Part shown: one piece after another, positions 1,389 through 16,351 of the stretch | How the letters are laid out: every line of letters begins with the position of its first letter | Position numbering within the stretch: position 1 is the stretch's first letter | Origin: Erythrobacter sp. YJ-T3-07 | GTDB taxonomy: Bacteria; Pseudomonadota; Alphaproteobacteria; Sphingomonadales; Sphingomonadaceae | Assembly (NCBI RefSeq): GCF_015999305.1 | Contig: NZ_JAEAGP010000001.1 | Span: 2,879,001 to 2,943,000, forward strand | Length of the DNA: 64,000 nt | Direction of reading: 5' to 3' | Notes under the pieces: generated by a model | Database searches by the model: none | What the model saw: only the letters and a program-made list of their open reading frames with translations | What the model was told of the DNA's origin: nothing | Position numbers and translations under genes: made by a program

Positions 1389-1607
1389 CGCGGCATCGGC
1401 GGGATGGAGCGGGCTGAACCAACTCGCGTAGCGGTGAGATCCGCCCGAACGTAGTTCGTGTGCCCATCTTCCGCATTTTTCCGCTCGGCAGATCCGCGAT
1501 CATGATCGCGCTCTGAATGCTCGCTATCAGCGAACGGGCATTCACCCTTCGGCTTACTATTGTTCGCCGGTGGTTCGATCTCAATGCTCATACGCACAAC
1601 TCCCTTA

Positions 1608-1671
1608 GTGCGTTGGCATTTAGAAAGTGCGTTTCAGAAAAGCAAGGAGATTCGCATTGGCATGTAGAATT
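1608..1671. repeat. Tn7-like transposon end with TnsB-type repeats
   Basis: Two similar direct repeats lie about 43 bases apart: gcgttggcatttagaa at 1610-1625 and cgcattggcatgtagaa at 1653-1669. A weaker copy (gcgtttcagaaaag, 1630-1643) lies between them. Spaced ~20-bp repeats just outside tnsA are the usual layout of TnsB binding sites at the transposase-proximal end of Tn7-like elements. The element would extend leftwards from about 1670-1690. I cannot place the exact terminus or the target duplication. The whole 1389-1756 interval has no convincing gene. Confidence 0.5.
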
Positions 1672-1756
1672 TTTGTGTTAACTCGGCAGGTATGGATGAG
1701 AACACGACGTCAGCATCTTCGCTCGCCCGCCACTGGCATATGGTGGCAAGCGAGAC

Positions 1757-2827
1757 ATGAAAGGCGGCGCATCGGTGTCGCTGCCCAGCTCGCTCCCGGC
1801 CACTGATGAAGAGGAGTGGAAGCTACTATCACCTTCCCGGCGCGATCTGGCGCGACGTCGGATCGATGCGATAGAAGGGTGGCGCGACGGGGAACTCGAC
1901 ATTGAAGAGGCATGCCGAACTGCGAACGTGAGCATCAGTCGCTTTTACAGGCTTGCGGCTGCCTGGCGCGACCACCCATCGCTTGGTTCTCTCGCGGTGC
2001 GCCGAGGGTCAGGCGCGTCAGCTCGGGCTCGACCGTCCAAAGGGGAGGTCGTGAACGCCCTTCAAGCCGTTGTTGGTAAGGTCGTTCGCGCCCACGCCGA
2101 TGCGTCTGTCGCCCAGTTGACCCGCCACATGGTCGAAGCAGCTGGAGTTGATCCAACCTCCGCGCCGAGCCCAATGGTCTTGCGCCGTATCGTCGAGACA
2201 GAGATTCGGCGCGTCAAGGCTACGGGCGAGGCAGGTCACGCTCTGCGCTTCGATTGTTCGGCTATCAGCGCCCCGCAGGGGGATGGTCGGCCTTGGATCT
2301 TGTTCGTCGTTCTCGACGTGGGCACGCGGATGATACTCGGCTGGCATGTCGCGGAGAGCGCCGTAGCGCTCCCAGGCTATCAGCGAGCGGCTCGCGATGC
2401 CCTGGCGAAACTTGACGATCTGTCTCCACCGACCTGGGCAAGGCGACTGACCGAGGTGGAAATCAAGTCCGGGCTCGACAAGGAAGCGACTGCCAAGCTT
2501 GTCGAGCGCCTTGACGCAGCCATATCCGGCAATGTCCAGCACGCAGACAGCGACGCTCGCTTCGGTCGATATTTTAAGAAGCTGGTGGGCGGCAAGCTTG
2601 GTCTCCTCACCCTGACACCGGCAAGGACGTTGCGCGGAGATGCCCTGCCTCCGAACGGGGACATGACCCCTTGGTCGCGTTCGGAGCTTGAGGCCCATTT
2701 CGCCATCAGGGCAGCGGAGTATAATGATGAGGTCATGCGAGAGAAGCAGCCTCTAGCTTCCGACGCCTTGAGCGAGATCCCTGCGGAAGTGCTCGAACTC
2801 CTTCATATGGTTGCCGAGCCACAATGA
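1757..2827 (+). CDS. TnsB/Mu-transposase-like protein, probably catalytically degenerate
   Basis: This 356-residue protein has an N-terminal helix-turn-helix (about residues 46-72, IEEACRTANVSISRFYRLA) and a second DNA-binding segment (about 95-150). These are followed by a retroviral-integrase-like fold: RFDCSAI with D166, then strands ending VVLDVGTRMILGWHV. The C-terminal part resembles the end of a TnsB core but shows no second Asp/third Glu in the expected context. It runs convergently with the next gene, which has the same architecture, and lies outside the terminal repeats at 1.6 kb. It may be a repressor or accessory factor derived from a transposase; no function can be assigned from sequence. 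Confidence 0.6.
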   Translation: MKGGASVSLPSSLPATDEEEWKLLSPSRRDLARRRIDAIEGWRDGELDIEEACRTANVSISRFYRLAAAWRDHPSLGSLAVRRGSGASARARPSKGEVVNALQAVVGKVVRAHADASVAQLTRHMVEAAGVDPTSAPSPMVLRRIVETEIRRVKATGEAGHALRFDCSAISAPQGDGRPWILFVVLDVGTRMILGWHVAESAVALPGYQRAARDALAKLDDLSPPTWARRLTEVEIKSGLDKEATAKLVERLDAAISGNVQHADSDARFGRYFKKLVGGKLGLLTLTPARTLRGDALPPNGDMTPWSRSELEAHFAIRAAEYNDEVMREKQPLASDALSEIPAEVLELLHMVAEPQ

Positions 2828-2862
2828 ATCGCCTCTGACATCGGGCGACCTTGGCTTCGGAC

Positions 2863-3807
2863 TCAGCCTACGGCAATGTCGAAGGAAACCTGGTTGTATC
2901 CACAACGACGGTTGTGATCGCTGACGGCCTGGTCGATTGTCGCCATTGCGAAATCTTCACTGATCGCCTCGTCCTGCCGGGAGAGGTTGGCCGCGGAGGT
3001 CTTCAACGCCTTCTGGATCTGAAACACGACGCGAATATCCGCTAGCGCGCCTCCGAAGGTCTGTGACATGATCCGCTGGAGCGACCGCGGGTGGCTCTTC
3101 AAGTCATCGAGGCCATTTACGCCCAGTGATCGGCGTGCCTCTTTTAGGTCATTCGGACTTAAGAGCAGTGGCCGGGCCATCGCCTTCGTCGAACGCTTAC
3201 GAAGCAGATCATCGACCAAGTCCCTAACAGAGGCTGGCCGTGCCGGGTCGAAGGACACACGATGGGCGAGGATGCACTTTTCCGGCAACGCTACCGCCAC
3301 AAGGACGAGTGGAAAGGTATCGGGATGCGCCTTCACCACCAACCGCGGCCACATTCGGCCAACCACGATGCGGGGAGCGCCCTCCGCATTCGCGGCTTGG
3401 GCATGTCGCTGGCGTATCCAGTTGTAGATCGTTGGGCGGGACGGTGGCTTGGCTCCGACTTCGACGCAGCGCTGTTCGACGATCGGCGCCACTTTCGTCA
3501 GTTGCGCATCAGCGCCGCTTGCCTCGATGACTTCTGTCGCGATCGCCTTGGCACGTGGGTCGATGCCGTAGTTGCGCGTCGCTCTTCCCCGCTTGGTCAC
3601 TACGAGCATCGTCGCATTCCGGTGTTCGCACCATGCCTTGACCAGCCGCTGAAACTGGTAACGCGTTATCCCGATCGAGCGAGCGAGGCGAATGGCATCC
3701 TCGCCGGTCGGAGACGGCAAGCTCAGATACTTGTCTATGGCGGCTAACCTGCGCTTGGCCTCGGGCACGCGCGTCGGCTCGATACCGGCAAAATCCGGTT
3801 CAGGCAT
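2863..3807 (-). CDS. TnsB/Mu-transposase-like protein, degenerate paralogue of the neighbour
   Basis: This 314-residue protein has the same order of parts as the convergent gene at 1757: a helix-turn-helix near residues 40-60 (AIRLARSIGITRYQFQRLVKAW), a second one near 95-135, then an integrase-like beta region around 145-190 (LVLVAVALPEKCILAHRVSF). The first catalytic Asp of a DDE core is not evident. The last ~30 residues (VSDHNRRCGYNQ) resemble the end of transposase cores. The two stops are only 35 bases apart. A role in target recognition, regulation or immunity is inference only. Confidence 0.55.
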   Translation of the reverse strand: MPEPDFAGIEPTRVPEAKRRLAAIDKYLSLPSPTGEDAIRLARSIGITRYQFQRLVKAWCEHRNATMLVVTKRGRATRNYGIDPRAKAIATEVIEASGADAQLTKVAPIVEQRCVEVGAKPPSRPTIYNWIRQRHAQAANAEGAPRIVVGRMWPRLVVKAHPDTFPLVLVAVALPEKCILAHRVSFDPARPASVRDLVDDLLRKRSTKAMARPLLLSPNDLKEARRSLGVNGLDDLKSHPRSLQRIMSQTFGGALADIRVVFQIQKALKTSAANLSRQDEAISEDFAMATIDQAVSDHNRRCGYNQVSFDIAVG

Positions 3808-3959
3808 TTTTCCACTCCTAACTATTACAACTGCAAACTTTGGCTCATTCCACTCCCCTCCACCCCAAGAGGGTTGTCGGGCGTCTGCGACCGCGCGCGT
3901 TCACCGCACCTCGGTGCGACGGCCATTGAATGGATCGGAAGGTCCGGTAAGAAGTTCGA

Positions 3960-4391
3960 ATGTCGGCACTTCTTCTTCTCGCAGCCGCAGTCGTGCCGGC
4001 CGGCGAGGCTTTCACCTGCACCCCCGAAGCCGTGTGGGACGGCGATGGGCCTGTATGGTGCGAAGAAGGTCCTCGTATCCGGCTCGCCGGCATTGCAGCG
4101 CGCGAGCTCGACGGCTCCTGTTCCGATGGTCACCCCTGCCCCGCAGCCGACGCGATGGTGGCGCGCGACGCATTGGTCGACTTGATCGGCCGCCCCACCG
4201 GCACCGGGCGCCACGGTCATGTCCTCGTAGCGGGTCCTGCGATGCGATGTGTTTCGACCGGTTCTGCAGGAGGCGATCGGACAGGCGCGTGGTGCATCTC
4301 GCCGAAGTCCGGTGACCTGTCTTGTGCTATGGTCCGCGGAGGTTGGGCAGCTCGGTGGGACCGGTATTGGGGGAGGCACGAATGTCGCTGA
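3960..4391 (+). CDS. Secreted thermonuclease (SNase) family protein
   Basis: This 143-residue protein starts with a short signal peptide (residues 1-17, MSALLLLAAAVVPAGEA). The SNase-like core begins at about residue 18: RIRLAGIAARELDG contains the Arg and Glu expected near the active site, followed by a Cys-rich central part and a C-terminal segment rich in Trp and Arg. Short staphylococcal-nuclease-like proteins of this type are common in sphingomonads. It overlaps the next gene by 10 bases and probably forms an operon with it. No strong Shine-Dalgarno precedes the start. Activity is not certain because the catalytic triad is only partly recognisable. Confidence 0.7.
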   Translation: MSALLLLAAAVVPAGEAFTCTPEAVWDGDGPVWCEEGPRIRLAGIAARELDGSCSDGHPCPAADAMVARDALVDLIGRPTGTGRHGHVLVAGPAMRCVSTGSAGGDRTGAWCISPKSGDLSCAMVRGGWAARWDRYWGRHECR

Positions 4392-4756
4392 GGGATTGGA
4401 GTGATCGGCAAGGCGAAGAGCCCAACTGGTCGATCAGGCTGGAGTTCGGGCTGGTCGCCGCGCTTGTGCTTGGATCACTGGTCATTGCAGTTGTCTCGCT
4501 CGTGTGGGCGGCCGCTGCTTCGGCCCATCCCGGAGGTCTCGCGGCCGACGGATGTCACAATGATCGCAAGAACGGTGGTCGTCATTGCCACCGCGCTCAG
4601 GCCCCACCAGCACGGGAGCGTCCGCCAGCAAGCGGGGCTGTATACTATGCGAATTGCGCCGCGGCGCGTGCTGCGGGGGCAGCACCCGTCAGGAGAGGCG
4701 ACCCGGGATATGCCAGGCACCTTGATCGCGATGGCGATGGTATCGGCTGTGAGTAG
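4382..4756 (+). CDS. Excalibur calcium-binding domain protein with one membrane segment
   Basis: The start at 4382 is chosen because a ggagg-type ribosome site lies just upstream; the frame is open further up. The protein has 124 residues. Residues 19-45 form a membrane anchor or uncleaved signal. A His/Cys motif follows (HPGGLAADGCHNDRKNGGRHCH), found in small secreted proteins next to excalibur domains. The C-terminal excalibur motif ends in DRDGDGIGCE. The partner SNase gene overlaps its start, a pairing seen in nuclease-excalibur fusions, so the two products may act together outside the membrane. Confidence 0.75.
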   Translation: MSLRDWSDRQGEEPNWSIRLEFGLVAALVLGSLVIAVVSLVWAAAASAHPGGLAADGCHNDRKNGGRHCHRAQAPPARERPPASGAVYYANCAAARAAGAAPVRRGDPGYARHLDRDGDGIGCE

Positions 4757-4774
4757 TTTTGGCTCGCGAGCGGG

Positions 4775-6466
4775 ATGGTCGACGTGAAGGGTTTTTGGCG
4801 CAGGCTCGCCGAACTCGCATCTGCTCCGACAGCGGAAACCCCGCGGCACCCTCCCTCGCAACCCGAGATCTCTACGCGTTGCGCGCTCGACTTCTTCTCC
4901 GATCGGTTTCTCACCATACGAGATCTTGGCTTTTTCGGGCAGTTTTCCCGCTCGCCGAATGGCCGCTATGTCGTTGGCTGGTCGGATCGCAGTCCGGATG
5001 GCAGTAGGGGCGGCCACCGGTATGACGGAGAGGGGCGATGGATTCTGCTCGAGGGCGATCGCCTGATTGCACAAGGCAACCTTCAGCGTCCCCAGGACGG
5101 GAAGGTCGCCGACGACGGCACGGTATTGATAAGCGACTGGTTGTTCGGGGATGGGCTCGACGGAGTGCTTGCTGGCTTTTCGAGCGAGGGACGGCAGCTT
5201 CTACACTACGCCCTAGCGGCCAACATCGACGATCACGCACTCTCTCCTGACGGAAGGACGGCGATCTGCCGGACGCTCAATTCTCCGGGGAGCAGTGATA
5301 GTTGCAAGCTGATCCTGTTTGATGTGCATGCGGGACGGGAACTCGCCCGATGGGATCCGGAATCCGTATCCATAGCCGGCTATGAATTCGATACCGATGC
5401 TGACCTGGTTCACGTCGTCACGGCGGACGGAGATCGCGCGGGTTATGACTTCACCGGTCGATTGGTGAATGCCACTGAGTGGCAGCGCGCTCGGATTGGA
5501 CGCGGTGACCTCAACGTGATCAAGTCCGCCATCGAGCAGGCCGGGTCAGATGCTGCGTCCGAAGACATCGCGGCGATTCTGCAGGGCCTCGCCGTAGCAT
5601 GCAGCACCGACGCTGATTGGCTTCGTGCAAGAGCCTTTAGAGCAAAGGGCGAACTACTCGAGAAACTGGGTCGCGATGCCGAAGCGTTGGAAGCGTATGA
5701 CAGCGCGCTGTTGCTTGACCCTCAGGTTGGCGTTTTCAGGCGTTCGGAAAAGTTGCGGCGCGCAGTTGGGGGGACGTCGAAGACGAAGCCACCGCCCAAG
5801 GGACGTCTGGAAAAGCAGGCTGACCGGTTCGGCATGAAGCATGAGGTCATCGAACTTGAAAAGGGCGAAAACAAGCTATGGAGGAGTGCCGCCTTCCGCG
5901 AATGGACGTCGATCGAGAATGCCGCGCTAGAGCATTACCTCGATGGAGGGTGGAGTGGGGCCGCAACCGAAGGAGGCTTGATCCTCACGGTTATCAAGGC
6001 CGCGTCCTTCGCTAAGCTGGTGGAGCGTAACGCCGATACCTACATCGAGGCGCTGTATGCGCAGAACGTCGCGTTCGATGAGGATCGATATGCCATCGGC
6101 GATCTGCTGGCGAGCGTCAGGCGAGCGGACATCGGGCAGCTGCGAAGGAACTGGGCTCTGATATCCAAGCGTTCAGGGGAAGCCCCTGCATTCTATCCAG
6201 GCGTCTGGTGGGATGGCGTGGAAGGCCTCTTCAAGGCGCTCGGCAACGAACGCCTCGCCGCCATTGCGGATCGTTTTTCTTCTGCGCCCTACGACCTGAG
6301 GGCGGGCTGGCCGGATCTCACGCTCTGGCGCGGCGACGAGGTTCGGTTCGTCGAGGTCAAAGGCCCCTCTGACTCCATACACGCAAGCCAGGCGCGACTA
6401 GTCCGCGATTTGCTCAATCCGTTGGCGCATCACGTGACGCTAGCAGAAATCATACAGGCCACATGA
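4775..6466 (+). CDS. Beta-propeller/TPR protein with C-terminal VRR-NUC nuclease domain
   Basis: This 563-residue protein has three recognisable parts. Residues ~40-240 carry repeated short beta motifs with SPDGR/SPNGR turns, suggesting a WD40/PQQ-like propeller. Residues ~270-325 look like TPR helices (AKGELLEKLGRDAEALEAYDSALLLDP). The last 60 residues match VRR-NUC: GWPDLTLW with D514, VEVKGP with E527 and K529, then SQARLV with Q539. VRR-NUC is a PD-(D/E)XK nuclease family found in FAN1 and in phage and restriction-like proteins. It follows the excalibur gene by 18 bases but may be independent. A defence role is inference from the domain and the neighbourhood. Confidence 0.7.
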   Translation: MVDVKGFWRRLAELASAPTAETPRHPPSQPEISTRCALDFFSDRFLTIRDLGFFGQFSRSPNGRYVVGWSDRSPDGSRGGHRYDGEGRWILLEGDRLIAQGNLQRPQDGKVADDGTVLISDWLFGDGLDGVLAGFSSEGRQLLHYALAANIDDHALSPDGRTAICRTLNSPGSSDSCKLILFDVHAGRELARWDPESVSIAGYEFDTDADLVHVVTADGDRAGYDFTGRLVNATEWQRARIGRGDLNVIKSAIEQAGSDAASEDIAAILQGLAVACSTDADWLRARAFRAKGELLEKLGRDAEALEAYDSALLLDPQVGVFRRSEKLRRAVGGTSKTKPPPKGRLEKQADRFGMKHEVIELEKGENKLWRSAAFREWTSIENAALEHYLDGGWSGAATEGGLILTVIKAASFAKLVERNADTYIEALYAQNVAFDEDRYAIGDLLASVRRADIGQLRRNWALISKRSGEAPAFYPGVWWDGVEGLFKALGNERLAAIADRFSSAPYDLRAGWPDLTLWRGDEVRFVEVKGPSDSIHASQARLVRDLLNPLAHHVTLAEIIQAT

Positions 6467-6501
6467 CCTTGGAGATGCGTGAACGTGAGAGAAATAAACA
6501 C

Positions 6502-6930
6502 TCACTTCTTGTTCTTCCTCCAAGGAAACACCTCATGTTTACGGTCGAGCCAGACAAGGTAGAATACCGATTCCTCGATCACGCCATGCATTCGCGCTGT
6601 GTTGCTTCGATCTACTCGGATCTCATGCATTCGGTAGTCCTTCCCGATCGTGTCGGGTCTCGTAAAACGCTTCGCCGGTCGCACTTCGCCTCGATGCGGA
6701 GAGCAAAGGCTGGAATTTCGAAGTGTCGTGACATCCATCGTTCGCAGTTTCTCGACGACACCGACGAAGCTCTTGAGATCAGCCTTGTTCCAGCTCGAAA
6801 GGCATTCCGTCTCTGCCCTGTAATGGGCGAAACTCACCGTTACCCCTTCATGATCTTCTAATGACCCCAAGGACGGGCGGGGATCTTGCCGGTCGGTGCG
6901 CATACGGCCCTGCTCGGAGTTATGCGGCAT
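6502..6930 (-). CDS. Putative toxin partner of Panacea antitoxin
   Basis: This 142-residue protein is encoded just downstream of, and overlapping by 11 bases, the Panacea-domain gene. ATG 6930 has gggagaag upstream; ATG 6903 is an alternative. The C-terminal half (YRMHEIRVDRSNTARMHGV, then FYLVWLDRKHEVFP) has the beta-strand pattern and terminal positive tail seen in small RelE-like or related toxins, but I cannot name the family. Panacea antitoxins are known to pair with many unrelated toxins, so position is the main evidence. It would act in the cytoplasm. Confidence 0.6.
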   Translation of the reverse strand: MPHNSEQGRMRTDRQDPRPSLGSLEDHEGVTVSFAHYRAETECLSSWNKADLKSFVGVVEKLRTMDVTTLRNSSLCSPHRGEVRPAKRFTRPDTIGKDYRMHEIRVDRSNTARMHGVIEESVFYLVWLDRKHEVFPWRKNKK

Positions 6931-7399
6931 CCTTGATCTTCTCCCTGTAGAAGCTCTTCATGGCGGTCTTGGGGATGACCCTGTCGCTGGGTGCCAGAGG
7001 TGCGAGGCCCTTTCGAGCGGTGTGCCAGGGGCCGCCGGGCTCCTTGGCGAGTTCGTCCAGCTTGAACGGCATGTAGCAGCCATAATCCCTCTGGATGCAT
7101 TCTAGCATCTCGAGTTTGCTACCCTTGATCGTGCGGCTGTTCTCGATGTCCGGTAGGCTCGCGACATCCATGCGCTCGAAGCGCTCGTAGATCGCGGGAA
7201 TTATGGGACCTGTGCCCCAGGCTTCGAATTCCTCTTCGAACATTTCGTGTCCGGTGTTCGCCAGATACCAGGCTTGTGCGAAATAAAGGAGCCGGTGGAC
7301 AACGTCGGTGGTGATGACTTCACCCATCCTTCGGTCGATCCGATTGATAAACCAATCTGCGACATCGTGGGCATCGATCTTACGGGCCATATCTTCCAT
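6920..7399 (-). CDS. Panacea (SocA/DUF4065) domain antitoxin
   Basis: This 159-residue protein has the Panacea domain layout: DVADWFINRI near residues 13-22, TTDVVHRLLYFAQAWYLA near 30-47, and EAWGTGPIIPAIYERF near 59-74. The combination of VHRLLYFAQ and FEAWxxGPxxPxxYxxF is the family hallmark (GepA/SocA-like). Panacea proteins neutralise diverse toxins and are usually encoded next to them, as here. A second Met lies three codons downstream. The genes read leftwards as an antitoxin-first operon. Confidence 0.8.
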   Translation of the reverse strand: MEDMARKIDAHDVADWFINRIDRRMGEVITTDVVHRLLYFAQAWYLANTGHEMFEEEFEAWGTGPIIPAIYERFERMDVASLPDIENSRTIKGSKLEMLECIQRDYGCYMPFKLDELAKEPGGPWHTARKGLAPLAPSDRVIPKTAMKSFYREKIKDAA

Positions 7400-7653
7400 C
7401 TCTTTGTTTTCCTTTCCAAGATGAACTTCAATCCCGAAATTTCCGTAAAAACAGTCCTCGGTTTATCGATGGCTAGTTCCAGGCGTCGCCCAATCGAAAA
7501 ATGACGAAAGCGCCTGAGGGCTGACCGCCCAGCACGCCGAGCGCGTAGAAGGCGCTACGATTTCCCAAGGCGAGCCCGGTGTCGCCTTCGAAGGAAGCGA
7601 ACTGCTATCCGCGTCTTGCGGTCACGGCTCGCAGACGTCTGGCTGTGTGCTAG

Positions 7654-8172
7654 ATGGCGCGAATGGCGGTTTATTTCATTCTGGAAGAGAACGACGCTGA
7701 TTGGCGAATGAAGATCGGCCGATCACGCAACCCGCAGGGTCGCGGTCGCGCCTTGCAGACCGGAAACTCGCGGCAGCTCAAATTGGTCGGTTGGATTGAC
7801 GACGGATCCGACGCTGTGACGGAGGCTAGTCTGCATGCCAAGTATGCTTGGGCCAATGTGAATAGAGGTAGCGAGGTCGCGGCGCGGGAATGGTTCTACC
7901 TGCAACCGGCCGATATTCTTGCCGATCTCGCACACGCGGGTCGTTTCGGTTTCGTTGCCAAGAACGCGGACGCGTTCGAGATTGTGGGCTACGACCGCGA
8001 TGCGGTTCCCGAGTATGTCGGCGTCTGGGACTGGGCAGACTTGGAGATCGACGAATGCTGCCCGTTCTGCGGTTGCTTTTGCGGGATGCATTTCCAGGAC
8101 GCATCCTGGATGTATCACTGCATGAATTGTGACGCATTGACCGATTTCGAGGGAGGCGGAAACCTTCCCTGA
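7654..8172 (+). CDS. GIY-YIG/T5orf172-type nuclease domain protein with zinc ribbon
   Basis: This 172-residue protein opens with VYFILEEN and MKIGRS, the two short motifs that replace GIY and YIG in T5orf172/Mug113-type domains. A basic helix and a conserved Glu region (EASLHAKYA) follow. The C-terminal part has a treble-clef or ribbon-like cysteine set: CCPFCGCFCG and YHCMNC. Proteins of this kind are found in phages and mobile elements, often as single-gene nucleases. No operon partner is visible: the gene before it is on the other strand and the next is convergent. Confidence 0.65.
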   Translation: MARMAVYFILEENDADWRMKIGRSRNPQGRGRALQTGNSRQLKLVGWIDDGSDAVTEASLHAKYAWANVNRGSEVAAREWFYLQPADILADLAHAGRFGFVAKNADAFEIVGYDRDAVPEYVGVWDWADLEIDECCPFCGCFCGMHFQDASWMYHCMNCDALTDFEGGGNLP

Positions 8173-8278
8173 TGTGTGAAACGCCGAAGGCGGGACGACG
8201 GCGACGTGAGCAGCTGACTGAGTTCGGCGGACCTGCGAACTTCTCATCTGTCCCAGGCGCTTGGCTGTCACATGCCGA

Positions 8279-8575
8279 TTAGGGTCGTTCTTCCGACGCT
8301 AGCGCGCGGCGTTGCGGGCGACGCCCCTCCTGCGCCAATAATCGATTAAGCTTGGCCACGTCGCGCTCGATCCGACGCGTGAGACGCATGAGTTCATCGG
8401 CACGCTGCACCGGAGGCGGAGGATTCTGGTTCAGCCATGCATTCATAGCGTCATGCATGCCATTCGTAAGAGCTACGGTTCCTCGCACGATCTTGCTGTA
8501 ATGCGGCTGCGTTATTCCGAGCTGCTCCGCGACCGCGTGCTGGGTGAATCGACGCGCCAGGCGGGCGCGCTCCAT
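8279..8575 (-). CDS. XRE-like helix-turn-helix regulator
   Basis: A classic HTH (FTQHAVAEQLGITQPHYSKI) lies near the start, followed by a charged helical tail. ATG 8575 is preferred because ctggaaaag precedes it. The longer form from ATG 8614 (111 residues) has no ribosome site and would leave only 13 bases to the divergent glycosylase start. The gene faces away from the OGG/QueC cluster across an AT-rich palindrome, so it is the likely repressor of that cluster and of itself. This is inferred from position. Confidence 0.7.
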   Translation of the reverse strand: MERARLARRFTQHAVAEQLGITQPHYSKIVRGTVALTNGMHDAMNAWLNQNPPPPVQRADELMRLTRRIERDVAKLNRLLAQEGRRPQRRALASEERP

Positions 8576-8608
8576 CTTTTCCAGAAGACTTCTTGCTGCC
8601 GAATCGGA

Positions 8609-8632
8609 ATGCATATAATATGCATATATGCA
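8609..8632. promoter_or_regulatory. AT-rich palindromic operator over divergent promoters
   Basis: ATGCATA-taa-TATGCAT (8609-8625) is a perfect inverted repeat, overlapped by a second one, TGCATATATGCA (8621-8632). A perfect -10 hexamer TATAAT sits at 8614-8619 on the plus strand, with a poor -35 upstream. Initiation 7-9 bases later would fall on the ATG at 8628, so the glycosylase mRNA may be leaderless. The HTH gene next door is the obvious candidate binder. Confidence 0.5.
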
Positions 8633-9443
8633 TTCGCTATCCCTCTCAACCGACCAGATCGTCTACGCGTTGAAAGAAGAGGCATTCTTCGAATTGCGCT
8701 TGCCTTCCGCGTCCACCGGGGTCGGCATTTCGGACTTGCGATGGGGAATGCATGACCACCCCAAGACGCCGGCTTACTGGGCGGCGCAATCCTGGATGTG
8801 GGGGCTGCAGGCGCCAGGGCATTACAAGCTCGGTAAGTCCTTGGAGGACGAATTGGTCGCTTGCCTTCTGGGGGGCTACGGCATCCCCGCCGAAGTCGGT
8901 ATCGCCGCTTACGAGCGCATTAGATCCGAATGCGATGGACGTTACGAGGCCCTGGCGGATGAGAGCTTTGTGCTGGATCTGCTGAGCAGGCCGCTCGAGG
9001 TCAGGGGGCGGAAGGTGCGTTACAGGTTCGCGCGGCAGAAGGCGCACTTCCTGGCATCTTCGTTTCAGGCTCTGCCGGAGATCGACCAGGGTCTTCCCGA
9101 TCGTGCTCTGCGCGACGGGATCATGACCCTCAAGGGAATTGGCCCGAAGACGGCGTCGTGGGTCGTGCGCAACTGGCGGGACAGCGACCTGGTCGCCATC
9201 CTCGATATCCATATCGTTCGCGCCTGCGAACATATGGGCCTCTTCGAGCCCGGCTGGAGGGTGGAGCGCCACTATCTAGCCATGGAGGAAGCATTCCTCG
9301 CCTTTGCAGAGGTGATCGGAGCGCGCCCCTCGCTGCTCGATTCGGTCATGTGGAACGTCATGCGTGAACTGGCCAGGCAGCCAGTCATCGATCGCAGGCT
9401 GGAACCGACAGCCGATCTTCCTCTCTTTGCTTCGGTCAACTGA
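8628..9443 (+). CDS. OGG-like HhH-GPD DNA glycosylase
   Basis: This 271-residue protein has a helix-hairpin-helix GPD centre: LKGIGPKTASW with the catalytic-type Lys174, and ILDIHIVRAC with Asp193. The Lys/Asp pair marks bifunctional 8-oxoguanine glycosylase/lyases. The N-terminal ~120 residues do not look like standard OGG1 or AGOG. OGG-like proteins of this kind occur as accessory genes in CBASS type IV (cap11), together with a QueC-like protein, and a QueC-like gene lies 1.6 kb downstream here. The start has no ribosome site and sits directly after a TATAAT box, which suggests a leaderless transcript or an internal start. It would excise a modified base from DNA; its substrate is unknown. 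Confidence 0.75.
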   Translation: MHSLSLSTDQIVYALKEEAFFELRLPSASTGVGISDLRWGMHDHPKTPAYWAAQSWMWGLQAPGHYKLGKSLEDELVACLLGGYGIPAEVGIAAYERIRSECDGRYEALADESFVLDLLSRPLEVRGRKVRYRFARQKAHFLASSFQALPEIDQGLPDRALRDGIMTLKGIGPKTASWVVRNWRDSDLVAILDIHIVRACEHMGLFEPGWRVERHYLAMEEAFLAFAEVIGARPSLLDSVMWNVMRELARQPVIDRRLEPTADLPLFASVN

Positions 9444-9523
9444 GTATTCCGCTGAAATGAACATGTTCGCGGTTGACGCGCGTGCACACCGGACATCATT
9501 CTTCCTTTCAAGGGAGAAGTATA

Positions 9524-9904
9524 ATGTCTGGAAGAGGGCCGGATTCGGGAACGGATCACAATCGCAATTCGATCGGCAGCGGTGGCTCACCTGGTAGCGG
9601 ATCCGGAGCGGGTGGGGGCTCCGATGCTGACGACTGCAACTTCGTCCAGACCGCGCCTCTCTCCAGTCCGGTCCCAGCCGTCGTTTCGGGCTTGAAGGTC
9701 GGCGATGTGCTTGAGGTGGATCTTCAGAATACTCCCTCCGGTAATCGCTTGGTGGTCAGCACCGCGGGCGGACAAGCTGCAGGTTCGCTCACACACCCCG
9801 GTCACCTGAAGATCATCCAGTGCATTGGCACCGGACACATCTACAAGGCGACGGTCGTCCAGAAGACGGGCGCCCTCATTGCCCTGAGAATTGAACCGAA
9901 ATGA
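9524..9904 (+). CDS. Small Gly/Ser-rich N-tail protein of the QueC cluster
   Basis: This 126-residue protein starts at an ATG with a strong ggga-gaag site 5-10 bases upstream. Residues 1-36 are a low-complexity Gly/Ser/Asp tail (MSGRGPDSG... GSGSGAGGGSD). The rest is a compact beta-rich domain (LKVGDVLEVDLQ, then HLKIIQCIGTGHIYKATVV). It overlaps the next gene by 4 bases, so it is coupled to the enzymes. No known family is recognised. Its size, flexible tail and position suggest a substrate or carrier for the downstream enzymes rather than an enzyme; this is inference. Only one cysteine lies in the tail boundary (DDCNF) and another in the domain. Confidence 0.75.
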   Translation: MSGRGPDSGTDHNRNSIGSGGSPGSGSGAGGGSDADDCNFVQTAPLSSPVPAVVSGLKVGDVLEVDLQNTPSGNRLVVSTAGGQAAGSLTHPGHLKIIQCIGTGHIYKATVVQKTGALIALRIEPK

Positions 9905-11091
9905 CCGCTGTCGTCGGCGGTGTTTACGCCGAGGAATGCCTCGAACCGTTCTGGAACGATGTATACGGGTCGGGCGGCCGCGCGGCAGCCGCGCTTTCGG
10001 GCTGGTGCGATGATCTGAAGCTCGTCACCTATCGGTCATCGGCGTTGGCAGATGGGCTGGAAAACCTGTCGGCCATCTATGGTTTCCCGATCGAAGGCCC
10101 CGAGGTCCGGGATGCGGTGAGTTTTCGATATATCCATTCTCTCGATGAGCCCAGGATCGCACCTCGGCCCGATTCCATTAGCGTTCACCCACCGATCGAA
10201 GTCAGCGGCGACGTCGTTCTACGGTTCGGCATGCTCGAAGGGGATGCGAGGGTGGCAGCCCGCCGGGCAGTTTACGACCCGCAATCGGCCTTCGATCCCC
10301 GGCCGTTCCACGAGAATGGATCCACGGCAGACGAGCTCGCCCTCATCCTCAACGCTTTCGAGGCTAGGCGGCTGACGAACGAGACCGAGCCCGAACGCAT
10401 GGTCGAAGCATTGATCGAGAAGCAGGATGCCAGCATCGTGGTTCTCAAGCTTGGCGGTCATGGAGCGATAGTCGCGACGCGAACTTCGCGAACCCGGGTT
10501 CCTGCCTACCGCAGCGACACGGTATGGAAGCTGGGCACCGGGGATGTCTTCTCGGCTGCTTTCACAAAGTTCTGGGCATGCGATGGCCTGGAACCCGCGG
10601 AAGCTGCCGATCTCGCTTCGAGGTCGGTATCCGTATATGCATCGACCCGCTCATTGCCGATCCCCGCGAAGAAGGAACTCGCGGCGCTGGACCTCTCGCC
10701 GGTCACACCTACGAGCGGACGGGTTTACATCGCAGCACCGTTCTTCACTCTGGCTGACCTCTGGCTCGTCGAGGAGATCAGGCAGCGTCTGCTCGACATG
10801 GGCGTTAGCGTATTCTCGCCGTTGCACGATGTTGGCTTGGGAACGGCGCAGGAGGTCGCGCTGCGAGACCTCGAGGGACTGGACCAAGCCGATGTCGTGT
10901 TGGCAGTCCTCAGCGGTTCAGATCCAGGGACGATATTCGAGGTCGGATATGCGGTGGCGAAAGGCAAGCCCGTCATCTGCCTAGTCCAGAACATGCGCGA
11001 CGAGGATGCCAAGATGCCAGAGGGCAGCGGGTGCCTGATCGTATCGGATCTCGTGACCGCCATCTACCATTCGATCTGGGCGCTGGCATGA
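9901..11091 (+). CDS. PfkB-like kinase fused to nucleoside 2-deoxyribosyltransferase
   Basis: This 396-residue fusion has two domains. Residues ~1-265 are PfkB/ribokinase-like: they contain WKLGTGDVFSAAFTKF, the family's second signature with the catalytic Asp (about 214), though the N-terminal glycine motif is weak. Residues ~275-395 are a nucleoside 2-deoxyribosyltransferase-type domain: VYIAAPFF, then LDQADVVLAVLSG and GTIFEVGYAVAKGKPV with the nucleophile-type Glu near 347. Such enzymes cleave or exchange the N-glycosidic bond of deoxynucleosides, and PfkB enzymes phosphorylate sugars or nucleosides. It overlaps its neighbours by 4 bases on both sides, so it belongs to the same operon. 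Confidence 0.8.
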   Translation: MTAVVGGVYAEECLEPFWNDVYGSGGRAAAALSGWCDDLKLVTYRSSALADGLENLSAIYGFPIEGPEVRDAVSFRYIHSLDEPRIAPRPDSISVHPPIEVSGDVVLRFGMLEGDARVAARRAVYDPQSAFDPRPFHENGSTADELALILNAFEARRLTNETEPERMVEALIEKQDASIVVLKLGGHGAIVATRTSRTRVPAYRSDTVWKLGTGDVFSAAFTKFWACDGLEPAEAADLASRSVSVYASTRSLPIPAKKELAALDLSPVTPTSGRVYIAAPFFTLADLWLVEEIRQRLLDMGVSVFSPLHDVGLGTAQEVALRDLEGLDQADVVLAVLSGSDPGTIFEVGYAVAKGKPVICLVQNMRDEDAKMPEGSGCLIVSDLVTAIYHSIWALA

Positions 11092-11678
11092 AGGGACTGC
11101 TTCTCTCGGGCGGCATGGATTCGATTGCGCTTGCTTGGTGGCTGAGGCCCGAGCAAACCATCACCGTCGATTACGGACAGCTTGCAGCGATCGCCGAAAC
11201 GCGAACCTCGCGTCAGGTATGCGAGGAACTCGGCATCGGGCATACGGTCATCGAAGCGAGATGTCCCGAGCTTGGCTCGGGCGACATGGCGGGCGACGCG
11301 CCGCACCAACTGGCGCCGGTTACCGAATGGTGGCCATTCCGAAATCAGCTGCTGGCAACTTTGGCCGGCATGAAAGCCGTTCAATTGGGCGTAACGGAGC
11401 TGATATTCGGAGCAGTTCGAGGCGACGGTTCGCATGCCGATGGCCTTCCCCGGTTCTTCGAAGACCTTAACCGGTTGATGTCCGGGCAAGAAGGAGGACT
11501 GAACGTGACAGCGCCCGCGATCGGAATGTCCACCGAAGAGCTGATCTTGAAGTCGAAGGTTCCGCGATCCGTCCTGGCATGGGCGCATTCCTGTCACAGG
11601 GGCGAACTGGCCTGCGGCGACTGCAGAGGCTGCTACAAGAACGCGGAAGTGATCGCGAACGTGTATGGGGATCTTTAA
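11088..11678 (+). CDS. QueC-like 7-cyano-7-deazaguanine synthase family protein
   Basis: This 196-residue protein has the PP-loop ATPase motif SGGMDS at residues 7-12 and the zinc cysteines C169-x6-C176-x2-C179-x2-C182, both diagnostic of QueC. True QueC converts 7-carboxy-7-deazaguanine to preQ0 with ATP and ammonia. It is short for QueC (usually ~220-235), and no queD, queE or folE lies nearby, so it is more like the QueC homologues of defence systems (CBASS Cap9, QatC) than a queuosine pathway gene. It is coupled to the upstream fusion gene (ATGA) and overlaps the nitroreductase gene by 14 bases. Confidence 0.8.
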   Translation: MKGLLLSGGMDSIALAWWLRPEQTITVDYGQLAAIAETRTSRQVCEELGIGHTVIEARCPELGSGDMAGDAPHQLAPVTEWWPFRNQLLATLAGMKAVQLGVTELIFGAVRGDGSHADGLPRFFEDLNRLMSGQEGGLNVTAPAIGMSTEELILKSKVPRSVLAWAHSCHRGELACGDCRGCYKNAEVIANVYGDL

Positions 11679-12360
11679 CGAGCCTCGACCGATCGCGGGC
11701 GTAGCAGCTCCGACGAGATCTTGGCCGGCGTTCGAGCACGCTATCCCCCTGACCCGGCGGATCCTGACCGGTTCTGACGGTTTCTTCGAGGTGTTGGCTC
11801 GGCGCCGCTCCGCGCTGGGAGGTTCTGTCAGCGAGCGCGAACTGTCCTCCCTTCTGTGGCATGCCATGCTGCTTCGAGAACGGAACCGTAATTCGAGGTT
11901 CGGCGAGTGGGAGAGCCGCGCGGCCCCGTCCGCAGGGGGTCTCCACTCGCTCGGCATCGCCTGTCTTCCCGTCGACGGCTCGCCTTGGTGCGGATTATAC
12001 GATCCCGAAGCACACGAACTTCGGAGCTCCTCCTCTTTCGAAGGGGCCGTGTCGCTCAATCGGAACGAGATAGACGAGATTTTGAGTTCGAAGCACGGGA
12101 TCACCCTTCAATTCATCGGTGATCGTCGACGCTACGAAGCGTGTTACCAACATTGGGAATCGCTGTTCTGGCGGGACGCAGGGGCACTTCTCGGAATCAT
12201 CACGATGATCGCAACCGCGCTGGGTCTCGAAGCGTCGCCGGTTGGGCGAAACGGAAGAGACATCGTCGCCGCGGCTGGTTTCCCCACCGAATACCTGGCG
12301 GGCGGTGCAATCCACATCGGCTCTGCCGGGACAACTGACAAGATTGGCGAAGGACATTAG
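11665..12360 (+). CDS. SagB-like nitroreductase family protein
   Basis: This 231-residue protein has the SagB/McbC-type flavin oxidoreductase pattern: SERELSSLLWHAMLL near residues 53-67, RAAPSAGGLHSLG near 84-96, and WRDAGALLGIITMIATALGLEASPVG near 170-195. Family members bind FMN and oxidise or reduce small substrates; SagB-type enzymes oxidise azolines in peptide natural products. It is the last gene of the 9524-12360 operon and ends 39 bases before the stop of the convergent nuclease gene. Its substrate here is unknown; a deazapurine or a modified small protein are possibilities. Confidence 0.7.
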   Translation: MGIFNEPRPIAGVAAPTRSWPAFEHAIPLTRRILTGSDGFFEVLARRRSALGGSVSERELSSLLWHAMLLRERNRNSRFGEWESRAAPSAGGLHSLGIACLPVDGSPWCGLYDPEAHELRSSSSFEGAVSLNRNEIDEILSSKHGITLQFIGDRRRYEACYQHWESLFWRDAGALLGIITMIATALGLEASPVGRNGRDIVAAAGFPTEYLAGGAIHIGSAGTTDKIGEGH

Positions 12361-12399
12361 GAAGCGGGCTATCCGCCCAATGGCGAGCCGGTTTCACCG

Positions 12400-15300
12400 T
12401 CAGTGTTGAGAAGCGACGAAGGGCGAGAGATCCGCGACCGATGTGATAATGTCGAAGGCCTGCCCCAAGGCGGCATTGAATTGCATCGGGACCAATGACG
12501 ATGTGACGAGCGCGGATACCAGAGAGATATCCCCGGCCTCCAGGCCGGTGACTTTCGCTAGGTCTTCGAGATGATCCCTCAACACCGCAATGCGGTCCGT
12601 GTGCTTGACCGTCGGCCCTCTTTTTGCATCCTCCGCCGACCTCGGTGAATATTCCGAGAGGCGTTCGGCGATTTCGCCGACCGTCCGGTCGGCGCGGAGG
12701 CGTTTGCATTCTATGGCGAAGACGCGGCCGTCAGCGGGTCGCCAAGCCAGCACATCGACGTCGCCGTTTCGCTTCGTGCCTCCCAGTCGCGCCATATCGA
12801 CCTCGGCAATTGCCACCAGTCCCATTGCTTCAAGGTCGTCTCTGACCTTTTGGTTGAACGCGTGCCCCCTCTCGTCAATGACCGAGCCTATCCAGCTCCG
12901 CATCTCATCACTGCGATAGAAGTCGACAGGCAGTCCGCCCGAATGCGCACGCAGAGCGTAGGTCAGGGCATGGTCCAGGAGGATTGGAGACAGCACAAGT
13001 TCGGGATCGTCTCTACCGTCGAGATTTATGATCGGCCGCGCCAGAAGGCTGAGGCGCCGCGCATGGCGCCACGGCCACCAGTCCCTCGCGGATGCGCCCT
13101 CGGGCTTCTTCTCGTCCCACTTGGACAGAGGTCGCAGCGACCATGTGTCGAGAAGGGCACCAATTCCGTCTTGATCGATTTCGAGCCTGTCCTTGGCTAG
13201 CTGGATCAGTTCGGAACGACGTATCCGGACGATATCTCCGCCTCGTTCGAGTGCGATCAGACCGACGAATGACACTATGTCGGCCATGCCCAAGGGATCG
13301 ACGCCGTATTCGGCCAGGAACGCTGCATCGAATGCCGCGTCCCTCTTTTCCTCATACTCTTCCCGCTCCAATGGTTCTGCACGTCGATAGATATCAGCGT
13401 AATCGCCAGCAGCGGCCTCGAATTGCTCCTGGGAGGATGCTCGCAGGTAAGGGGTATGAACTTGTTCGGCGAAATCGTTTTCGAAGCGGAGGGTGCCATT
13501 CGGCATCACCGCGAGTTCGGAAGCGAAGCCATGGTGGATCTCGTCACTTCGGGAGGCGATCGCAGTCATCAAGGAGATTTCCGCCATCATCTGATCAAGG
13601 TCGTAGACCGAGCACTCGCGCCCATGCTCCGTAGGCGAGGTGCACAACGCCATTTCAGCCAGGACCCGTGAGCACAGTCCCGCTTCGGCTCGCTCGCTTT
13701 CAAGGTTGATGGCGACCCGGACGCCCTCTTCGGGGGGATGGAGGGAGAGAACCGCCGCGGCCGTCGTTCGCCATCGGTTCCTGTCCTTGTCGACCGCATG
13801 ATGATTGCGAAGCGCCATCTCGATGACGTTGGCCCTGTCCAGGTCTTCAAGCCTCGTTCGGATCCTGGTCCATAGATCGTCCACCAAACCAGCCAGGAAC
13901 TTGGTTGCTTCGAGGCCCCGAACTACATTCGTTTCGTCGTCGGCCCCGACGCTGGCCAGTCCGACTTCGGCCCACGCCCGGACCTCCGGTTGCACCTTCC
14001 GAAGCGGATGATGGACGGCACTCGCGATCACCATCTGCGTGGTCGTCGCAGCGTTGAACACGTGAAGATGGCGCGCTGAGTCATCCTTGACTATCTCGCG
14101 TTCCATCGCATCAGCGCACGCAGACGGGTCTTGATTTGCAAGTCCGGCCGCACCCGAGGCGATCGCCCGCACCATCCATCGGTCGCCCTGATTACCGGGA
14201 TGGCCGAAAGAACGAAGATAGGGTTCAGCACAGGAGATCCGAATCGTCCCGCCGCCAAGGGAGACATTGGGCGGCTCGATTTTTCCTTCCTCTGCCAGCA
14301 GTTCCTGCTCATCAATCCGTCCGAATGTCAGGACTACCTCGACATGTCCCGGCAATTCTTCACCCAAATGGATTTCGAGTTCTGGCGCAAGCGGAATGAG
14401 CCAGTTCTGTGCCATGTCCCATACTCGAAAGGGGAGCGATCCGGCAGTGATTGGGTCACTGGCCTCTACCGTCAGCCACCACGTTGTCCTGCTGCCCTCT
14501 ATTGCGACTGCAGGGTGGCCATGACGCAGATCGTCAACGCTCACGAACGCGCTTTCGGTGCTGGCCGCCTCGAACAAGGGCAACGCGGAAGGGCGCTGCA
14601 CCTCCGCCCGATAGCCTCTCGAAGGACGCGCGACGCTATGCTTGTCGAGCGCCTGCCGAATCCGGATGCGCAGCTTGCTGAGATGATCGGTTCCCATCTG
14701 GATCATGGATGGCGCCGAGTGATCGACCTGCTCGGGCAGAAGCGTGAAATCCTGCTCTTCGACCATGCCGTAGAGGTTCATGAACCCATTCGGATTGAAC
14801 AGCTGGATGCCTCGCCGTGCGAGTTGATCCTCCTGCTCGAGAATCCTGAAAATGCGCAATGCGTCGATCTCCCCGGCGGATGCCAGAAGCGAAAGGTCGT
14901 CGTAACCAAGCCCCACGATCTGCCAGCAGTCTGGAGGTCTTCCGTGATCGGCGACCACACCGCGGCCCTGTCCACCGAAGACCAGCAGCGTCATGCCGCG
15001 CAAGTAGTCGTCGCGCGCGCTGCACTCTGCCGCTGCTTGCGTGATCAGCCTTCGGACAGGCGTTGAAACGTCCTGGACCGAACGGAAGCCTTCCGCGATT
15101 ACGTCATTTGGGTGGTCCGGCACGAATATGACCTGACAATAGGCTCCCGCATCGAACCTGCATAACTGGACCACGCAGTGACTTTGGACATCCGACCAGG
15201 GTGGAGCGGCAGGGCTCAGGTCGAGTCCGCGCACAGCGTCCCCTACCGCCCCCAAGAATTGATGTTCGGTTAGATGTCCTTCGTAAGCATCCCCCGCTTG

Positions 15301-16116
15301 GTTATCCCTCGCGAGTTCCAGTGCGCGGCGGCGGACCGCCGCGCCAATTGCCGTGGGAAGCAGCACCACGATGCCATCTTCTGTCCGCGAGACGGGCCGC
15401 CGCTCAAGGCTCGTCCAGTTGATGGTTTCGTTCCGCAAGAGCTGCGGATCGACGCGCGAGAAGTCGAAAGGGAGAAGGTCGAACGGTTCCACTCCGATCG
15501 CGTGCAGTTCCGCCTCGGTGAAGGTGACCGCTGCGCATGCACGTAGTGCCTTCGCGGTATCGAACCGAAACCGGTCGCGCGGCTTGCCCTCACCAGCTTG
15601 GTAGCGTCGCAGTCCTGCTCGCTCCGCTATCGCCTCGCCAATTGCCAACAACGCGTTTGCCTGACGCATTCCGTGCTGCGCCCATTCGTGACCATCTGCG
15701 ATCGCGCTGTTGAGCGCAGAGAGACAGCTCTGGGTATAGGCTGCGTTCGCTTCCCAGGTTCCTTCGAGGATGCGGAAATCGCCGGCCCCTGTGGTGATGT
15801 TGGAGACGAAGACGTCTTCGGAGGGATCCTCCAGACGCCATACGGCCCCGCGCGCGAGGTCATTATTGAGGAAGTCGCGGATCCGCGCAGCCGAGGGTTC
15901 TTCGTGTCCATCGCAATGCGCAGCCGCCAAGTGGGCGAGCACCTCCAGTCGAAGTATACCGCCTTGAAGACCGGGATCGAGCATGAGCCCTGCGACCATG
16001 CCGCAGGTTGCGTTTCGATCGAGCTTGCGCAGCCGTCGGCACAGCCGCTCATGCGTCGCCGTCAGAGATTCGATGTCGAGGACCGCTCCCGCCGTCGCCA
16101 TTGCTTCCAGTTCCAT
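12400..16116 (-). CDS. Very large uncharacterised protein with C-terminal PD-(D/E)XK nuclease
   Basis: From ATG 16116 the product has about 1238 residues; the frame stays open to 16503 but would then run into the upstream promoter of the metal operon. The only recognisable part is the C-terminal nuclease: GDVDVLAW with D1119/D1121, then FAIECKR with E1136 and K1138. The remaining ~1100 residues are mixed alpha/beta with no Walker A, helicase or methylase motif that I can see. ATG 16101 is an alternative start. It is convergent with the QueC operon. It may be a single-gene restriction or phage-defence protein; that is inference from the nuclease and the neighbourhood. Confidence 0.65.
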   Translation of the reverse strand: MELEAMATAGAVLDIESLTATHERLCRRLRKLDRNATCGMVAGLMLDPGLQGGILRLEVLAHLAAAHCDGHEEPSAARIRDFLNNDLARGAVWRLEDPSEDVFVSNITTGAGDFRILEGTWEANAAYTQSCLSALNSAIADGHEWAQHGMRQANALLAIGEAIAERAGLRRYQAGEGKPRDRFRFDTAKALRACAAVTFTEAELHAIGVEPFDLLPFDFSRVDPQLLRNETINWTSLERRPVSRTEDGIVVLLPTAIGAAVRRRALELARDNQAGDAYEGHLTEHQFLGAVGDAVRGLDLSPAAPPWSDVQSHCVVQLCRFDAGAYCQVIFVPDHPNDVIAEGFRSVQDVSTPVRRLITQAAAECSARDDYLRGMTLLVFGGQGRGVVADHGRPPDCWQIVGLGYDDLSLLASAGEIDALRIFRILEQEDQLARRGIQLFNPNGFMNLYGMVEEQDFTLLPEQVDHSAPSMIQMGTDHLSKLRIRIRQALDKHSVARPSRGYRAEVQRPSALPLFEAASTESAFVSVDDLRHGHPAVAIEGSRTTWWLTVEASDPITAGSLPFRVWDMAQNWLIPLAPELEIHLGEELPGHVEVVLTFGRIDEQELLAEEGKIEPPNVSLGGGTIRISCAEPYLRSFGHPGNQGDRWMVRAIASGAAGLANQDPSACADAMEREIVKDDSARHLHVFNAATTTQMVIASAVHHPLRKVQPEVRAWAEVGLASVGADDETNVVRGLEATKFLAGLVDDLWTRIRTRLEDLDRANVIEMALRNHHAVDKDRNRWRTTAAAVLSLHPPEEGVRVAINLESERAEAGLCSRVLAEMALCTSPTEHGRECSVYDLDQMMAEISLMTAIASRSDEIHHGFASELAVMPNGTLRFENDFAEQVHTPYLRASSQEQFEAAAGDYADIYRRAEPLEREEYEEKRDAAFDAAFLAEYGVDPLGMADIVSFVGLIALERGGDIVRIRRSELIQLAKDRLEIDQDGIGALLDTWSLRPLSKWDEKKPEGASARDWWPWRHARRLSLLARPIINLDGRDDPELVLSPILLDHALTYALRAHSGGLPVDFYRSDEMRSWIGSVIDERGHAFNQKVRDDLEAMGLVAIAEVDMARLGGTKRNGDVDVLAWRPADGRVFAIECKRLRADRTVGEIAERLSEYSPRSAEDAKRGPTVKHTDRIAVLRDHLEDLAKVTGLEAGDISLVSALVTSSLVPMQFNAALGQAFDIITSVADLSPFVASQH

Positions 16117-16351
16117 GCCACGTAGATGGCTGGGCTTGTCGCGATAGGCAATTGGGCTTGCTCGTTCGGTAATAAGGATACGGTATGCTCCGCGAGTCCT
16201 GACAAGACGAGTGCCTTGAGAATATGAGATGCGATCGGTTGAGTTTTTCGAGCCGCTCAGCACGATTAAATTACCGCGCTGTAATGAAATCACATTTCGT
16301 CTTTTAAGATTATTCTTTCGCAGCGGTGCTCCTGCTGCTAACGGACGACCG

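What the first reader, a model, noticed from the sequence alone, without database searches (positions are those of the whole stretch)
8279..12360. Uncharacterised QueC-OGG-NDT-nitroreductase cluster, candidate anti-phage or DNA/protein modification system
The sequence shows an HTH regulator divergent from an OGG-like glycosylase. After 80 bases comes a tightly coupled operon: Gly/Ser-rich small protein, PfkB-NDT fusion, QueC-like, SagB-like nitroreductase (4-, 4- and 14-base overlaps). QueC-like and OGG-like proteins are known CBASS type IV accessories, and QatC of Qat is QueC-like. Here neither a CD-NTase, a TGT, nor QatA/QatD is present. The combined chemistry (base excision, base exchange or removal from deoxynucleosides, deazaguanine synthesis or ATP-driven coupling, redox) suggests a dedicated base-analogue pathway.
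Basis: partly seen in the sequence, partly recalled or inferred. Interest (0 to 1): 0.92.

Follow-up and report, generated by a model that had tools for sequence, protein, structure and literature searches.

The report
HIRAN-protein nucleobase-tagging operon, probably antiviral
A small set of bacterial genes that travels together across distant bacteria and archaea appears to attach a modified DNA base to the front end of a DNA-binding protein, and its company in genomes suggests that it protects cells against viruses.

Summary
An HTH gene lies divergent to an OGG gene, followed by a coupled operon: small Gly/Ser protein, PfkB-NDT fusion, QueC-like, SagB-like FMN enzyme. It recurs: of 88 sources (80 genome loci, 7 viral, the window), NDT lies beside QueC in 86, the small protein in 82, the SagB-like gene in 81, OGG in 77. 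The set spans several bacterial phyla; plasmid relatives add a cyanobacterium and haloarchaea.

Best reading: a third QueC-type nucleobase-to-protein conjugation system, with a HIRAN acceptor. No CD-NTase or Qat partner was found. The chemistry is inferred. The QueC and PfkB-NDT pair is in print as QueC 'Cluster 4', read there as purine salvage.

The parts
8279..8614 (-). HTH (Cro/C1-like) regulator, divergent from the OGG gene
   Evidence: Pfam HTH_3 2.3e-6; a relative of this HTH lies within 6 kb of QueC in 34 of 88 sources
8609..8634 (.). probable operator: ATGCAT repeats between the HTH and OGG starts; overlaps both assigned start codons, so the OGG start at 8628 may be wrong
   Evidence: ATGCAT N0-9 ATGCAT in 16 of 27 divergent HTH/OGG regions; 38 occurrences in all in 1.61 Mb of loci
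8628..9443 (+). OGG-family HhH DNA glycosylase with the catalytic-type Lys174 and Asp193 kept
   Evidence: PF22175 7.7e-12; K174 and D193 in at least 95% of 80 aligned sequences; they align with K and D of solved Ogg lyases
9524..9637 (+). N-terminal tail (residues 1-38) of the small protein, starting M-S-G, Gly/Ser-rich, predicted disordered: proposed acceptor
   Evidence: M-[S/T]-G in 81 of 84 hits; mean pLDDT 55-63 over residues 1-30 of the model
9638..9904 (+). HIRAN-fold domain (residues 39-126) of the small protein, with stop codon
9901..11091 (+). PfkB-type kinase fused to nucleoside deoxyribosyltransferase; NxxE (151-154), GxGD (212-215) and GTxxE (343-347) kept
11088..11678 (+). QueC-like (PF06508 Cluster 4) ATP-dependent enzyme, structurally closest to Cap9; H116-A-D118-G in place of the QueC YPDC
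11665..12360 (+). SagB-family FMN dehydrogenase-like protein
12400..16308 (-). Upx-like protein; moves with the cassette in close relatives but is not part of it elsewhere
   Evidence: PADLOC 4.1e-186; found in 3 of 88 sources: window, L005, L006; G049 shares 8356-16157

Best explanation
A mobile, probably antiviral, nucleobase-to-protein conjugation system. Inferred steps: (1) host QueD/QueE supply 7-carboxy-7-deazaguanine (CDG); (2) the Cap9-like QueC enzyme activates its carboxyl with ATP and joins it to the free N-terminus (Ser/Thr, Gly in some) of the HIRAN protein after Met removal; (3) the SagB-like FMN enzyme, where present, further oxidises the modified N-terminus; (4) PfkB-NDT acts on the tethered base, exchanging deoxyribose onto it and phosphorylating it, in the place that the TGT-like Cap10 takes in type IV CBASS; (5) the HIRAN domain brings the tag to DNA ends or damaged phage DNA, where OGG, an adenine methylase, a dGTPase or a restriction nuclease act. 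Shown here: the genes, their co-occurrence, the nearly fixed N-terminus on a variable tail, the predicted HIRAN fold, kinship to Cap9, kept catalytic motifs, defence neighbourhoods. Not shown: any reaction or any phage protection.
Against: The exposed residue is mostly Ser, not the Gly of CBASS and Qat, so the acceptor chemistry may differ. Tyr of YPDC is His here. One of 12 plasmid relatives (L097) starts MSSG. A QueE-type match is absent in 4 of 41 cassette genomes and weak in 3 more; two of the 4 have a canonical QueC, so the model may miss some QueE, but two have neither. 7 of 88 sources lack the SagB-like gene and 11 lack OGG near QueC (some contigs are cut), so these are not core. In the FastTree, Cap9 (two fragments) lies nearer canonical QueC than Cluster 4 (3.3 against 3.9), unlike the fold ranking, and the Cluster 4 clade has support 0.73. 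No Foldseek match to HIRAN is below E 0.001. Defence setting is company, not function; controls were mostly housekeeping regions, and several PADLOC profiles can match one gene.
Confidence: 0.55

Rival explanations
1. A free base-analogue pathway: QueC makes a 7-deazaguanine, NDT makes its deoxynucleoside, PfkB its 5'-phosphate; the analogue poisons or marks DNA, and OGG and the methylase protect or clean host DNA. The HIRAN protein is a DNA-end sensor.
For: NDT plus kinase is a base-to-nucleotide route; dGTPase (16 of 88) and adenine methylase (34 of 88) fit deoxynucleotide and DNA chemistry.
Against: Does not explain the nearly fixed start of the small protein on a variable tail or a SagB-type, usually peptide-acting, oxidase.
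Confidence: 0.17
2. Purine salvage or nucleoside metabolism, as proposed in print for QueC Cluster 4.
For: PfkB-NDT gene in about 89% of Cluster 4 neighbourhoods (PMC13329287, parts 1-3 of 5 and a term search read).
Against: Sparse presence (3 of 298 genomes of the family), defence-rich neighbourhoods and plasmids, OGG, HIRAN protein with a nearly fixed N-terminus.
Confidence: 0.08
3. A RiPP-like toxin: the small protein is a precursor, QueC activates amides and the SagB-like enzyme oxidises azolines in its Ser/Gly/Cys region, giving a modified toxin or effector.
For: SagB kinship; Gly/Ser-rich tail; Ser or Thr at position 2 in all 75 scored hits with the SagB-like gene (2 unscored).
Against: The HIRAN domain makes up most of the protein and is conserved; no YcaO or peptidase among the 20 window proteins scanned with Pfam, whose transporters (16.7-24.5 kb) are RND and cation efflux genes; 6 of 7 hits without the SagB-like gene keep Ser2 too.
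Confidence: 0.08
4. The genes are neighbours in a defence island but not one system.
For: Dense defence islands bring unrelated genes together; Upx beside the cassette is found in only 3 of 88 sources.
Against: Same small protein, NDT and QueC set with two main gene orders over several phyla, and by annotation in haloarchaea.
Confidence: 0.05

Closest known systems
Type IV CBASS (Cap9 QueC-like, Cap10 TGT-like, CD-NTase with MGGS start)
   Same: QueC enzyme closest to Cap9 by fold and profile; partner protein with a fixed Gly-containing start; a base-exchange enzyme family beside it.
   Different: No CD-NTase; acceptor is a HIRAN-fold protein; NDT-PfkB instead of TGT; SagB-like oxidase; His instead of Tyr in the base pocket.
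qatABCD (QatB MGTS tail, QatC)
   Same: QueC-family enzyme plus partner with disordered tail and fixed N-terminus (PMC13279940).
   Different: QatC has large extensions and Thr/Thr instead of Tyr/Asp in the pocket; QatB is helical, not HIRAN; no QatA, QatB or QatD match in the 20 window proteins scanned.
PF06508 Cluster 4 (Libby et al. 2026, PMC13329287)
   Same: Zinc motif CH(x)5CxxCxGCxK matches exactly; YGQ then E (5 residues between here, 6 as printed); PfkB-NDT neighbour; HTH neighbour.
   Different: The parts read describe no small protein, OGG or SagB-like enzyme (0 hits for nitroreductase, glycosylase, HIRAN and dGTP in its main text; its supplements were not seen) and it is read as purine salvage.
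HIRAN proteins: HLTF, Rad5, HamB of Hachiman
   Same: Fold of the small protein.
   Different: Those are domains of helicase proteins (recalled); here a stand-alone domain with an N-terminal tail.

Membership tests
PF06508 Cluster 4 | SGGxDS, YGQ..E, CH(x)5CxxCxGCxK zinc motif, PfkB-NDT neighbour | tested here: met
   (E spacing differs by one from the printed YGQ(x)6E)
Canonical queuosine QueC | YPDC and VPxRN motifs and grouping with QueC | tested here: not met
   HADG in place of YPDC, WWPFRN in place of VPxRN; separate clade; host has two further, high-scoring QueC
Type IV CBASS | CD-NTase in the operon | tested here: not met
   none among 20 window proteins (0.5-25.5 kb) scanned with PADLOC or 20 with Pfam
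Type IV CBASS | TGT-like Cap10 | tested here: not met
   same scans; NDT-PfkB stands in that place
Type IV CBASS / NDG systems | deazaguanine conjugated to a protein N-terminus | not testable with these tools
   needs mass spectrometry
qatABCD | QatA, QatB, QatD | tested here: not met
   no PADLOC match among the 20 window proteins scanned
HIRAN domain | HIRAN fold | tested here: met
   by predicted fold; no sequence match in PDB at E 10 or Pfam at E 0.1
HIRAN domain | binding to DNA ends | not testable with these tools
   recalled for HLTF; not tested for this protein
SagB peptide dehydrogenase | NCBIfam TIGR03605 above cut-off | tested here: not met
   window protein 29 bits, cut-off 78.4; family relation in 53 of 54 members at E 0.01
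Ogg-type DNA glycosylase-lyase | Ogg-HhH domain with catalytic Lys and Asp | tested here: met
   by sequence only
Nucleoside deoxyribosyltransferase | D-x-G-T-x-x-E catalytic motif | tested here: met
   G343, T344, E347 invariant and D341 in at least 90% of 46; aligned with 6evs
PfkB kinase | NxxE and GxGD motifs, full fold | tested here: inconclusive
   both motifs invariant in 46; the N-terminal half does not align to the Pfam model
Anti-phage defence system | protection from phage | not tested
   only neighbourhood evidence

The most novel reading that the evidence does not exclude
The HIRAN protein is turned into a protein-nucleotide. QueC ties CDG to its N-terminal Ser/Thr; a second, dehydrating activation (as when QueC makes a nitrile from an amide) closes that residue into an oxazoline, which the SagB-like enzyme oxidises to an oxazole; NDT then sets deoxyribose from deoxynucleosides (fed by the dGTPase found nearby in some loci) on the tethered deazaguanine, and PfkB phosphorylates it. 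The HIRAN domain holds this protein-bound deoxynucleotide at DNA ends, so that phage replication adds a bulky protein cap to its own DNA, while OGG removes such conjugates from host DNA. Every chemical step is inference.
Probability: 0.1. Interest if true: 0.97.

Novelty: new variant of a known kind. Interest (0 to 1): 0.86.

Why it matters
In the papers seen here, nucleobase-to-protein conjugation was reported in 2025 for one acceptor, the CD-NTase of type IV CBASS; Qat is a likely second. This would be a third, built on a HIRAN-fold (probably DNA-binding) acceptor. It would also carry enzymes (NDT, kinase, SagB-type oxidase) that point to further chemistry on the tag, and it is widespread: loci in several bacterial phyla and haloarchaea, and 2,192 database proteins related to its QueC at E 0.001 (only the best 120 were listed, and some of the rest may be canonical QueC). 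It gives an immediate test of what QueC-family conjugation is for, because the acceptor is small and its N-terminus can be read directly by mass spectrometry. It also re-reads a published 'purine salvage' cluster as probable immunity.

Tried and rejected

Defence-neighbour test: only the first 140 of 314 picked case ORFs and the first 140 of 236 control ORFs were scanned. ORFs were picked by a simple longest-first rule; family counts are not gene counts, since many profiles (GajA, DpdF) hit one gene. Control regions lie around QueE, other radical-SAM or QueC matches in cassette genomes and so include canonical QueC (6 ORFs) and one Dpd gene.

In the first start-site count one M-G-G was an artefact of taking the last matching start (L069); one search gives the corrected numbers. 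The tree holds 31 Cluster 4 sequences, 21 canonical QueC (one of the host's two) and two Cap9 fragments.

Literature: searches listed no paper that I could see describing the five-gene set. Of the listed papers, PMC13329287, PMC13279940 and PMC11996544 were read in part, and passages of PMC7824862, PMC12948488, PMC11706625 and PMC11090510 were seen (in the first two the term HIRAN matched only the author name Hirano); the rest were seen as listings. Supplements and most subscription journals were out of reach, so 'not in print' is limited to these searches.

Full report
What is there. The window holds, at the stated coordinates, an HTH gene divergent from an OGG-type glycosylase and then, 80 bases on, four overlapping genes: a 126-residue Gly/Ser-rich protein, a PfkB-NDT fusion, a QueC-like protein and a nitroreductase-like protein. 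The nitroreductase is recognised through its family: 53 of 54 aligned relatives match the SagB peptide-dehydrogenase model at E 0.01 (the window's own at 29 bits, under the cut-off of 78.4), and the family profile finds SagB-type dehydrogenases in the PDB at 1.4e-17.

It recurs. A scan of genome contigs with the QueC family gave 255 relatives, of which the best 80 were kept, and viral contigs gave 7. With the window that is 88 sources. Within 6 kb of QueC lie NDT in 86, the small protein in 82, the SagB-like gene in 81, OGG in 77 and an HTH relative in 34. Two gene orders dominate: HTH(-)/OGG, small protein, NDT, QueC, SagB-like; or small protein, NDT, QueC, SagB-like with OGG convergent behind. 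In the second, an adenine methylase of the D12 class follows OGG in 30 of 42 loci. By record titles the set includes Proteobacteria, Bacteroidota, Ignavibacteria, Aliifodinibius, a Thermoanaerobaculia MAG and a Sulfuricurvum MAG. Plasmid records add 24 places at 45-63% identity among 25 hits; the 25th, 24.5%, is annotated QueC. The 12 I opened include Synechocystis and three haloarchaea. In the haloarchaea the annotation shows only the tailed protein, NDT and QueC side by side. In Moraxella QueC is followed by a dGTPase, in Agrobacterium by a restriction endonuclease. The core is therefore tailed protein, PfkB-NDT and QueC, with changing partners.

Other enzymes look active. OGG keeps K174 and D193. 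PfkB keeps NxxE and GxGD, and NDT keeps GTxxE, all invariant in 46 sequences. The SagB-like family keeps R47, Y161, R170, G173, G194 and G214 in 54. The roles of these motifs are recalled from the families.

Setting. The QueC family is found in 3 of 298 genomes of the family at E 1e-30, and in 1 of the 7 listed of the same genus, the window's own. The window shares 29.5 kb (about -5044 to 24415) at 97.2% with G099, whose contig is that of Blastomonas marina by length. It shares 8356-16157 (most of HTH, the cassette and Upx) at 89.5% and 6524-8159 at 78.0% with another genome, G049, and 1090-16204 at 96.5% with Qipengyuania citrea. So the unit moves between genera. Over 140 flanking ORFs 248 PADLOC families are matched, against 26 over 140 ORFs of control regions; case families include GajA, AriA, Old, AbiLi, TniQ and type I and II methylases. 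dGTPase lies in 16 of 88 loci against 0 of 40 control regions, and the adenine methylase in 34 of 88 against 0 of 40; case loci total 1.61 Mb and controls 0.64 Mb. In 16 of 27 divergent HTH/OGG regions an ATGCAT N0-9 ATGCAT repeat lies between the genes, suggesting self-regulation.

Interpretation. In type IV CBASS, Cap9 joins CDG to the N-terminal Gly of the CD-NTase, which starts MGGS, and QatB has MGTS on a disordered tail (PMC13279940, parts 1-3 of 6; Wassarman preprint PMC11996544, abstract only). A nearly fixed start on a variable tail, next to a Cap9-like enzyme, is the same arrangement with a different acceptor. I therefore hold that QueC modifies the N-terminus of the HIRAN protein (0.55 for this as part of an antiviral system). 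That NDT-PfkB acts on the tethered base, as the TGT-like Cap10 binds it in CBASS, is an analogy. An oxazole through the SagB-like enzyme is suggested by Ser or Thr at position 2 in all 75 scored hits with that gene, but 6 of 7 hits without it also have Ser, so the link is weak.

Against. Ser rather than Gly is exposed; QueE is missing or weak in 7 of 41 cassette genomes, though two of the four without a match have a canonical QueC, so the model may miss some; L097 departs from the start motif; tree distances put Cap9 nearer canonical QueC, unlike the fold ranking. No function was measured.

Noticed in passing
window 12400-16308 (-): Upx-like protein (PADLOC E 4.1e-186) directly behind the cassette; only the window, L005 and L006 of 88 sources have it in the stretch held.
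   Followed up: partly
window 4775-6466, 6920-7399 (-), 7654-8172: TPR plus VRR-NUC protein, SocA/Panacea antitoxin-like protein and T5orf172/MUG113 (GIY-YIG-like) protein upstream: further defence-like genes.
   Followed up: no
window -5044 to 24415: 29.5 kb island 97.2% identical to Blastomonas marina, carrying RND and cation efflux genes besides the cassette.
   Followed up: partly
window genome G000:C1:149581 and C1:5555: Two further high-scoring QueC genes (231 and 222 bits) in one genome; a QueE-type match lies beside the second (C1:6840).
   Followed up: no
L017 12026-12700 (-) and 33 other loci: D12-class adenine methylase, behind the convergent OGG in 30 of 42 such loci: a probable extra member of that subtype.
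   Followed up: partly
L099 7572-9062; 16 of 88 loci: dGTPase gene within about 6.4 kb of QueC in several lineages and orientations; directly behind QueC on the Moraxella plasmid.
   Followed up: partly
L096 2267-4743; L101 8497-10312: Multiubiquitin and ThiF-type genes next to the cassette on Synechocystis and Rhizobium plasmids.
   Followed up: no
L048; L090; L019 and L059: Two copies of cassette genes in one locus (L048, L090), and two cassette loci in one Microvirga flocculans strain.
   Followed up: no
L092, L093, L100: Haloarchaeal small proteins seem to carry two copies of the small-protein domain after an acidic or polar tail (by eye).
   Followed up: no
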